Source: Planctomycetota bacterium (GTDB lineage: Bacteria > Planctomycetota > PUPC01 > JACPCR01). From it: a DNA stretch of 8,767 bases. The stretch lies in contig JASLXP010001291.1 in assembly GCA_030740295.1 (NCBI GenBank), positions 1 through 8,767 of the forward strand. The letters are read 5' to 3'. Below, in pieces: positions 7,934-8,497 of the stretch. A program made the position numbers and the translations under genes. The notes below the pieces were generated by a model that worked only from the letters and a program-made list of their open reading frames with translations, did no database searches and was not told the DNA's origin. How positions within the stretch are numbered: position 1 is the stretch's first letter; the number at the start of each line of letters is the position of its first letter.

Positions 7934-8497
7934 ATGGCCTGGATAAAGACCGAACCACCGGATGACGCTGCCGAAGATATCCAAAATGCATTTCAGGCCC
8001 TCAAGGCAATGTATCCCGATTGCTACGTATCCGGGGACAGCCCGAATCGAGATGTCGATAGTGTCATGGAAAGCCATGCGCTCATTCCGCCCGCGTTTTA
8101 CCATGCATTCGCAACCTTCGCGGTTCTTCTTTCTGAAGGCCTGCCCTTAAGCCGGCGAGACCACGAGCTCATCGCGACTGCAGTCTCCGCGGCCAACCGC
8201 TGCAATTACTGAATGAACGCACACGCAGAGTTTCTGCGTGCCACAACCCTTGATGCCGATCTCAGCGAAGCTGTGAAGAGCGATTACAAATCGGCGCGTC
8301 TCACAGACCGTGAACGCGCTATGCTTGATTTCGCAGTCAAGCTCACCGAGAACGCTTTCAAGATTCAGCCTGAGGACCACGAAGTCTTGAGACAGCACGG
8401 CTTCGATGATCAGGGCATCCTGCAGATCACCCTCATCGCCTCCTGGTTCAACTACATCAACAGAGTCGCCGATGCCCTCGGCGTTGGGCGTGAATAG
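7934..8497 (+). CDS. Probable selenoprotein: AhpD/CMD-family peroxidase-related protein with in-frame UGA (Sec93)
   Basis: Read through TGA 8210-8212 as selenocysteine, the product is 187 residues, close to the usual size of the 'uncharacterised peroxidase-related enzyme' branch of the AhpD/carboxymuconolactone decarboxylase superfamily. The core reads HELIATAVSAANRC, then NY, U93, MNAH. This gives E78, C90, U93 and H97, with the same spacing as E118, C130, C133 and H137 of mycobacterial AhpD. Sec thus replaces the peroxide-attacking cysteine. The part after the TGA (TDRERAMLDFAVKLTENAF, LRQHGFDDQGILQITLIASWFNYINRVADALGV) is the normal C-terminal half of the family. A hairpin at 8222-8240 fits a SECIS. 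The start ATG 7934 has an AGAGAGA purine run before it, and the gene ends at TAG. The likely role is cytoplasmic reduction of hydroperoxides using a thiol donor. The alternatives are a pseudogene or a sequencing error. Confidence 0.88.
8210..8212 (+). other. In-frame UGA, predicted selenocysteine codon (position 93)
   Basis: This TGA follows TGCAATTAC (Cys-Asn-Tyr) and is followed in frame by ATG AAC GCA CAC (Met-Asn-Ala-His), restoring C-x-Y-[C/U]-x3-H. The frame is open on both sides: 92 sense codons before it and 94 after it. TGA ends at least four other genes here (546, 1448, 5083, 7907), so a reassigned genetic code is unlikely. The ATG right after it has no ribosome site, so a second independent gene is unlikely. 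Confidence 0.85.
8222..8240 (+). promoter_or_regulatory. Candidate bacterial SECIS element
   Basis: CACGCAGA (8222-8229) pairs perfectly with TCTGCGTG (8233-8240), an 8-bp stem closed by the loop GTT (8230-8232). The loop begins 18 nt after the last base of the TGA. As I recall, bacterial SECIS elements sit inside the coding region directly after the UGA, with an apical loop roughly 16-37 nt away and a G among its first two loop bases; this hairpin meets that description. It would recruit SelB with Sec-tRNA. The same bases encode H97 to R102 and A103, so the structure coexists with a conserved protein stretch. Confidence 0.75.

What the first reader, a model, noticed from the sequence alone, without database searches (positions are those of the whole stretch)
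7934..8497. Unannotated selenoprotein: AhpD-like peroxidase with Sec in place of the nucleophilic Cys
Two adjacent short reading frames in the same frame, separated only by TGA, join into one full-length AhpD/CMD-family protein. The TGA stands exactly at the second Cys of the C-x-Y-C-x3-H active site (C90, U93, H97, with E78 at the expected distance of 12 from C90). That is the residue known in AhpD to attack peroxide, where selenium gives most benefit. Sec-containing AhpD-like proteins are known as a class. Whether this particular peroxidase-related branch has been described with Sec cannot be told from the sequence alone. Standard gene callers would report two hypothetical proteins and miss it.
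Basis: partly seen in the sequence, partly recalled or inferred. Interest (0 to 1): 0.92.

Follow-up and report, generated by a model that had tools for sequence, protein, structure and literature searches.

The report
Selenium-containing AhpD-like redox enzyme gene
A gene that ordinary software splits in two almost certainly makes one selenium-containing antioxidant-type enzyme; it belongs to a selenoprotein family that is already in print, and many of its relatives are misread in sequence databases.

Summary
Window 7934-8497 is one 187-codon frame broken only by TGA at 8210-8212, at the second Cys of an AhpD/CMD active site (E78, C90-x-Y-U93-x3-H97). The selenoprotein reading is strongly supported. 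TGA stands at that codon in 80 of 80 genome relatives kept (226 confirmed); 43 of 120 listed protein relatives have Cys there. A hairpin follows the TGA; its 18 bases are exact in 86 of 96 distinct TGA genes of 50% identity or more and one base off in 10, though other synonymous sites vary. The nearest relative (82% identity) has selA, selB, selD and tRNA-Sec. SelB is over cut-off in 28 of 33 TGA genomes tested and 0 of 5 Cys genomes. It is not new in kind: AhpD-like CxxU selenoproteins were described in 2005, and a 2026 review lists TIGR01926 CxxU. Added here: a branch in mainly metagenome-assembled Acidobacteriota, Gemmatimonadota, Latescibacterota and Planctomycetota with a nearly frozen SECIS, whose Sec appears as Trp in 75 of 120 listed entries. 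No genome of the window is held; selenium incorporation is not shown.

The parts
7934..8497 (+). Selenoprotein gene: AhpD-like / peroxidase-related enzyme (TIGR01926, CMD fold), 187 residues with Sec at 93
8210..8212 (+). In-frame TGA read as selenocysteine (U93)
   Evidence: TGA in 80 of 80 kept loci; Cys in 43 of 120 listed protein relatives
8201..8203 (+). Cys90 codon, first residue of the CxxU motif
   Evidence: C90 in 129 of 129 other TGA genes counted (3 of them repeats)
8165..8167 (+). Glu78 codon, proton-relay residue by alignment to AhpD
   Evidence: invariant in alignment A1 of 37 chosen proteins; relay residues as described in PMC3141380 (passages)
8222..8224 (+). His97 codon of the C-x-x-U-x3-H motif (also the 5' end of the hairpin)
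   Evidence: (nearly invariant)
8222..8240 (+). Predicted bacterial SECIS hairpin CACGCAGA-GTT-TCTGCGTG; the loop G is separated from the TGA by 17 nt
5301..7907 (+). Upstream ORF of 868 aa with HEAT-repeat-like stretches (HEAT models just below cut-off), ending 26 nt before the selenoprotein gene; an ORF 83% identical to it precedes the selenoprotein gene in the nearest relative L001. Its stop is TGA, which argues that TGA is also a stop in this genome

Best explanation
The stretch is one selenoprotein gene of the AhpD-like / peroxidase-related family (TIGR01926, CMD fold). SelB carrying Sec-tRNA binds the hairpin that begins 9 nt after the UGA, and UGA at codon 93 is decoded as Sec. The product has an all-helical AhpD core with Glu78, Cys90, Tyr92, Sec93 and His97 as the redox centre: Sec93 makes the nucleophilic attack, on a hydroperoxide or on the disulfide of a peroxiredoxin partner, and Cys90 resolves it as a selenenylsulfide that is reduced again by a thiol donor. 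Supported by comparative sequence: frame, conservation of TGA, Cys in its place elsewhere, selection on the hairpin, and presence of the Sec machinery in close kin. Inferred: actual Sec insertion, which of the two redox jobs it does, substrate and reductant. The confidence given is for the selenoprotein reading; for Sec93 as the attacking residue I would say 0.8, and between the two jobs I cannot choose.
For: TGA at codon 93 with C90 in 80 of 80 kept loci of 226 confirmed, TGA in 134 of 139 in the pooled set (7 repeats) and 20 of 20 later (5 repeats). Position 93 in the 120 listed of 794 protein relatives: 75 Trp, 43 Cys (4 of these without C90), 1 Leu, 1 Ser; 5 Trp entries matched a fetched locus at 96% or more and all 5 loci read TGA. 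Hairpin core of 18 nt in TGA genes at 50% identity or more: 89 of 99 exact, 10 of 99 with one change; without 3 repeats 86 and 10 of 96. Synonymous entropy 0 to 0.31 bit at codons 97-102 against a mean of 1.40 (minimum 0.48) at 93 other conserved positions. Other stems with pairing kept: L094, L098, L142, L117. Synonymous recodings of the window reach the observed hairpin score in 67 of 5000. Nearest relative genome G001: selA 483 bits, selB over cut-off, selD 366 bits with an in-frame TGA of its own, tRNA-Sec 76.8 bits next to selB. SelB over cut-off: 28 of 33 TGA genomes against 0 of 5 Cys genomes (Fisher p 5e-4); Planctomycetota sample 54 of 60 against 135 of 234 (p 9e-7). Fold: AlphaFold2 mean pLDDT 81, best PDB matches 6k40, 2prr, 2pfx, 3c1l, titled AhpD, peroxidase-related or antioxidant defence proteins.
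Against: No genome is held for the window, so its own selB/selC/selD are untested. The folding energy is only moderately unusual (z -1.97; 183 of 2000 recodings fold as well by total energy). The hairpin score stands out at 0.05 in 77 of 99 close TGA genes and in 13 of 31 distant ones, not in all; L109, L112, L120 and L148 have hardly any hairpin. 5 of 33 TGA genomes tested lack SelB over the cut-off: G002 (which has a 77-bit tRNA-Sec), G423, G583 (a 209-bit match with a TAA inside), G007 and G048; G007 and G048 also lack tRNA-Sec at 64 bits or more. In the Planctomycetota sample 6 of 60 TGA genomes lack it. All 5 Cys genes with DNA are of a CTRYC type without Cys90, so they are imperfect controls, and 1 of the 5 has a hairpin at another place that stands out at 0.05. 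Genomes in the association tests are related, so the p values are too small. No selenium or peroxidase measurement exists here.
Confidence: 0.95

Rival explanations
1. The TGA is a real stop (nonsense mutation or sequencing error) and the gene is a decaying or misassembled Cys enzyme.
For: Standard reading gives two ORFs of 92 and 94 aa.
Against: The same TGA lies at the same codon in 80 of 80 kept relatives labelled with several phyla; no other stop or frameshift in the window gene; the downstream half holds many invariant columns (99 to 182).
Confidence: 0.01
2. The organism uses a code in which TGA is Trp (as table 4 does) or another ordinary amino acid, so position 93 is Trp.
For: Protein collections hold 75 of 120 listed relatives with Trp at 93.
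Against: Four other ORFs of the window, the HEAT-like one among them, end in TGA, and the L001 homologue of that ORF also ends in TGA. Trp makes no sense in place of a catalytic Cys that 43 of 120 listed relatives have. The frozen hairpin and the Sec machinery would be unexplained. By parsimony the quick tree needs 8 switches between TGA and Cys.
Confidence: 0.02
3. Two separate half-proteins are made, the second by re-initiation at the ATG directly after the TGA (TGA-ATG, 8210-8215).
For: In the window codon 94 is ATG; it is also Met in 1 of 129 other TGA genes and in 3 of 20 later loci, L165, L168 and L169.
Against: In the other 128 of 129 it is not Met, with Ile in 85, and L001 at 82% identity has ATA. 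The cut would split the active site.
Confidence: 0.02
4. It is a selenoprotein, but works mainly as a thiol-disulfide adaptor that reduces a peroxiredoxin (AhpC-like) or another partner, not as a peroxidase itself.
For: In M. tuberculosis AhpD the second Cys bonds AhpC Cys61 (passage in PMC6626918); the related P. aeruginosa PA0269 showed only weak peroxidase activity (passages in PMC3141380).
Against: Of the window ORFs scanned with Pfam none is a peroxiredoxin (5 ORFs besides this gene); no neighbour is common to the 80 loci, the commonest ORF cluster being in 17 of 80.
Confidence: 0.45

Closest known systems
AhpD-like selenoprotein family, TIGR01926 / COG2128, motif CxxU (Sargasso Sea 2005, PMC1088965; GOS 2008, PMC2398784; reviews 2022 PMC9312934 and 2026 PMC13188914)
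   Same: Same NCBI family over cut-off, same CxxU motif, hairpin with a loop G after UGA
   Different: The two surveys are marine or mainly marine (GOS has some non-marine samples); this branch was found in Acidobacteriota, Gemmatimonadota, Latescibacterota and Planctomycetota records. Their sequences were not compared with this one residue by residue, so identity of branch is open.
NF041238 AhpD_rel_CFYUT (seleno)protein
   Same: AhpD-related, CxxU motif
   Different: 62.9 bits against a cut-off of 175: not a member
NF053654 GroundWater_YciW (seleno)protein
   Same: Named a YciW-related (seleno)protein; COG2128 is labelled YciW in PMC9312934
   Different: 30.5 bits against a cut-off of 310: not a member
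Mycobacterial AhpD (TIGR00777; PDB 1gu9, 1knc)
   Same: E-x11-C-x-x-C-x3-H core and all-helical fold
   Different: 24.3 bits against a cut-off of 191.95; weak fold match, Foldseek E 0.12; Cys not Sec
Peroxidase-related proteins with solved structures: 6k40, 2prr, 2pfx, 2oyo, 3c1l
   Same: Best sequence and fold matches, about 28 to 34% identity over most of the length
   Different: Cys enzymes; several titled uncharacterised

Membership tests
AhpD-like selenoprotein, TIGR01926 CxxU | TIGR01926 score over curated cut-off | tested here: met
   123.6 against 81.8 bits
AhpD-like selenoprotein, TIGR01926 CxxU | In-frame TGA at the second position of CxxC, Cys in homologues | tested here: met
AhpD-like selenoprotein, TIGR01926 CxxU | Bacterial SECIS hairpin with G in a small apical loop downstream of UGA | tested here: met
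   hairpin by prediction and comparison only; feature as worded in a passage of PMC1088965
AhpD-like selenoprotein, TIGR01926 CxxU | Sec machinery in the same genome | tested here: inconclusive
   window genome not held; complete set in the nearest relative G001
AhpD-like selenoprotein, TIGR01926 CxxU | Selenium in the protein | not testable with these tools
   needs 75Se or mass spectrometry
AhpD (TIGR00777) | Score over curated cut-off | tested here: not met
   24.3 against 191.95
NF041238 AhpD_rel_CFYUT | Score over curated cut-off | tested here: not met
   62.9 against 175
NF053654 GroundWater_YciW | Score over curated cut-off | tested here: not met
   30.5 against 310
Hydroperoxide reductase by function | Reduction of hydroperoxides or of peroxiredoxin disulfide | not testable with these tools
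   active-site residues present; no assay

The most novel reading that the evidence does not exclude
A large branch of TIGR01926 enzymes, mainly in metagenome-assembled Acidobacteriota, Gemmatimonadota, Latescibacterota and Planctomycetota, uses Sec as its usual state and carries a SECIS that is locked base for base into the catalytic HAEFLR codons across phyla. Cys forms are the exceptions, in lineages without SelB, and the branch is hidden in databases because Sec is written as Trp or the gene is split in two.
Probability: 0.5. Interest if true: 0.45.

Novelty: new member of a known kind. Interest (0 to 1): 0.36.

Why it matters
It adds a well-supported selenoprotein gene from uncultured bacteria to a known family, gives an easy rule for re-annotation (C-x-Y-TGA followed nine bases later by CACGCAGAGTTTCTGCGT), and indicates that many public entries carry a false Trp in the active site. 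The nearly invariant hairpin across phyla is a good natural test piece for what SelB needs, and the Sec and Cys forms allow a direct comparison of the two residues in one fold.

Tried and rejected
Rfam at gathering threshold and ARAGORN on the window gave nothing. The viral contig scan found no relative. Pseudogene, code change and split-protein readings were tested and dropped (see rivals). Neighbours: 291 flanking ORFs (mechanical calls, up to two per side) from the 80 loci were clustered. The commonest cluster occurs in 17 of 80 loci (three examples checked are amino acid permeases), the next in 16 of 80 (two examples checked are AMP-binding/acyltransferase proteins); neither was seen among the window ORFs scanned with Pfam, so context gives no function. 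A DNA control with a true CxxC Cys form was sought; only CTRYC-type Cys genes turned up, 5 in all. Sec/Cys tree on 134 rows: 66 TGA rows (the window and about half of the loci held), 20 of the 75 Trp proteins, and all 48 Cys rows; 8 changes by parsimony, at least 3 forced by starred branches. 57 of 129 inner branches are weak, so no direction of change is claimed. Two earlier scripts lost loci on the minus strand (95 rows read; 31 of 139 missing); one search replaced them. Repeat search in 8490-8767 gave nothing.

Literature searches; 18 and 19 had no hit. Only passages found by term were read, of PMC2398784, PMC13188914, PMC9312934, PMC1088965, PMC3141380, PMC12013277, PMC10101118 and PMC6626918; no paper was read whole. 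Other papers were seen as search listings only.

Full report
What is there. Window 7934-8497 is one reading frame of 187 codons with a single internal TGA at 8210-8212 and a TAG end. The joined protein is a peroxidase-related enzyme of TIGR01926 (123.6 bits, cut-off 81.8) with a CMD domain. Nine distinct PDB sequences match it, best 2pfx, 3c1l, 2prr, 2oyo and 6k40, and a model with mean pLDDT 81 (residues 1-60 are poor, 47 to 74 by blocks of ten) matches the same structures best. E78, C90, Y92, position 93 and H97 match the five proton-relay residues given for AhpD-like proteins in passages of PMC3141380.

Conservation of the TGA. A scan of genome contigs gave 226 confirmed relatives, of which the best 80 were kept. 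All 80 of 80 have TGA at codon 93 and Cys at 90; the other 146 were not seen. By my count of the record titles, 7 of the 80 are Latescibacterota, 8 Gemmatimonadetes or Gemmatimonadales/-aceae, 2 Planctomycetota, 1 an unnamed uncultured bacterium, and the other 62 Acidobacteria or groups that I place there from recall. Pooled with loci from protein searches of whole genomes and the window itself, 134 of 139 have TGA and 5 TGC. Of these 139, 7 repeat earlier loci over a 90-base stretch; 4 of the 7 had been dropped from the counts. A further 20 of 20 loci have TGA, 5 of them repeats. In the protein collection 794 relatives were found and 120 listed. Position 93 is Trp in 75, Cys in 43 (39 with Cys at 90, 4 with Thr), Leu in 1 and Ser in 1. 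Of the 75 Trp entries 5 could be matched at 96% or more to a fetched locus, and all 5 loci read TGA. So Trp looks like the mark of a gene call that reads TGA as Trp.

The hairpin. Nine bases after the TGA begins CACGCAGA-GTT-TCTGCGTG (8222-8240), with the loop G separated from the TGA by 17 nt. In 99 TGA genes with 50% or more identity (the window included) the 18 bases CACGCAGAGTTTCTGCGT are exact in 89 and one base off in 10; without 3 remaining repeats it is 86 and 10 of 96. Among the 18 such genes found by protein search of genomes, and so free of any DNA pattern, 13 are exact and 5 one off; without the repeats 10 and 5 of 15. The later set is exact in 20 of 20, 15 of 15 without repeats. 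Synonymous entropy at codons 97 to 102 is 0.14, 0.14, 0, 0.08, 0 and 0.31 bit, against a mean of 1.40 and a minimum of 0.48 at 93 other positions with a conserved residue. Only 67 of 5000 synonymous recodings of the window score as well on a hairpin measure of my own; on plain folding energy the result is weaker, 183 of 2000 (z -1.97). In the 99 close genes the measure stands out at 0.05 or less in 77 and at 0.2 or less in 98; the loop starts after 17 nt in 97 and after 16 nt in 2. Of 31 TGA genes under 50% identity, 13 stand out at 0.05 and 19 at 0.2. Several keep a hairpin of other sequence: GCAGG-GTT-CCTGC (L094), ACGGAG-CGGGA-CTCCGT (L142), CCGGCGCG-GTC-TGCGCCGG (L117) or, further down, GACCTCC-GGTC-GGAGGTC (L097); L109, L112, L120 and L148 have hardly any. 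Of 5 Cys genes, 1 stands out at 0.05 and 2 at 0.2, none of them with the 18-base core, which is 5 to 7 bases off in all 5. These are CTRYC forms without C90, so they are not ideal controls. A small apical loop with a G is the feature given for bacterial SECIS in a passage of PMC1088965.

Sec machinery. No genome is held for the window. The nearest relative is L001 (record title: Planctomycetota MAG; 82% identity), in which relatives of the window's HEAT-like ORF (83%), of the 3149-5083 ORF (79%) and of the T2SSE gene (73% over the 275 residues held) lie in the same order. Its genome G001 has selB (over cut-off), tRNA-Sec of 76.8 bits on the same contig beside selB, selA of 483 bits and selD of 366 bits with an in-frame TGA. 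tRNA-Sec was sought in 50 of the 80 genomes. I count 41 of 50 with a match of 64 bits or more. The other 9 reach at most 52.3 bits; in the 5 Cys genomes the best is 43.6 to 47.1 bits, so such values are doubtful (the tool's own count over its cut-off of 47 is 46 of 50). SelB was tested in 33 TGA genomes, chosen and including those 9 weak ones: 28 of 33 are over the cut-off, against 0 of 5 Cys genomes. Without it are G002 (tRNA-Sec of 77 bits), G423, G583 (209 bits, with a TAA), G007 and G048. Of the 9 weak ones 7 have SelB; G007 and G048 have neither. In a sample of 294 genomes of the phylum of G001, 64 had a relative at E 1e-20, 60 of them with one TGA inside the best match (of the 30 given as loci, 29 have it at codon 93 and 1 is TGC; the rest were not placed). 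Judged by best E-value, SelB is over the cut-off in 54 of the 60 and, from the tool's total of 189, in 135 of the other 234. The genomes are related to each other, so the p values (9e-7 and 5e-4) are only a guide.

TGA as a stop elsewhere. Of 5 other window ORFs looked at, 4 end in TGA, the HEAT-like one directly upstream among them, and the homologue of that ORF in L001 does too. A general change of code is therefore unlikely. Re-initiation at the ATG after the TGA fits few relatives: codon 94 is Met in 1 of 129 other TGA genes and in 3 of 20 later loci.

Sec and Cys. On a quick tree of 134 rows (86 TGA or Trp, 48 Cys) the two states change at least 8 times by parsimony, 3 of them forced by well-supported branches. 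Many branches are weak. It fits the usual to and fro between Sec and Cys.

How it most likely works. Supported by sequence: the frame, the conserved TGA, the Cys counterpart, selection on the hairpin, and the machinery in kin. Inferred: UGA is read as Sec by SelB with help of the hairpin; Sec93 is the nucleophile and Cys90 the resolving residue. Whether Sec93 attacks a hydroperoxide or a peroxiredoxin disulfide is open. A passage in PMC6626918 says that in M. tuberculosis AhpD the second Cys, not the first, bonds AhpC, while in B. thailandensis the first mattered more; another paper says that both are critical (passage in PMC10101118).

What is known. The Sargasso Sea survey reported 27 AhpD-like CxxU selenoprotein sequences of COG2128, with a predicted SECIS for one shown (passages, tables and legends). 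The GOS survey counted 299 'AhpD-like 1' of COG2128 and 70 'AhpD-like 2' of pfam02627 (table passage). A 2022 review lists AhpD-like COG2128 CxxU, and a 2026 review 'AhpD-like protein, TIGR01926, CxxU, MCB9421940.1' with the Sargasso Sea paper as reference. So the family with Sec is in print. In the library searched I found no paper that holds both TIGR01926 and selenocysteine other than that review. The pair selenoprotein and Acidobacteriota gave 10 papers (listing), of which I looked into one, deep-Sep, for six terms; AhpD was not among its words. Most subscription journals are not in that library.

Verdict. It is a new member, in a well-marked branch, of a known selenoprotein family, with high confidence in Sec and moderate confidence in the reaction.

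Noticed in passing
P0002-P0121 (protein collection), residue aligned to 93: 75 of 120 listed relatives carry Trp at the Sec position, apparently TGA read by a code in which it is Trp; 5 of 5 that could be matched to a fetched locus read TGA in DNA.
   Followed up: partly
L092, L140, L145, L146, L147: The 5 Cys relatives with DNA, all in genomes without SelB over the cut-off, have Thr at position 90; listed proteins of this type read C-T-R-Y-C in place of C-x-Y-C.
   Followed up: partly
L023, L038, L040 and others, ORF next to the TGA gene: An ORF of one cluster (three examples checked: amino acid permease, PF13520) lies within two ORFs of the TGA gene in 17 of 80 loci, mostly directly upstream on the same strand and in some overlapping it by a few bases.
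   Followed up: partly
G001:C37:2833-3759: selD of the nearest relative itself holds an in-frame TGA.
   Followed up: no
window 1517-2947 (-): Type II/IV secretion ATPase gene (T2SSE) with a long Pro/Glu repeat stretch before the ATPase domain.
   Followed up: no
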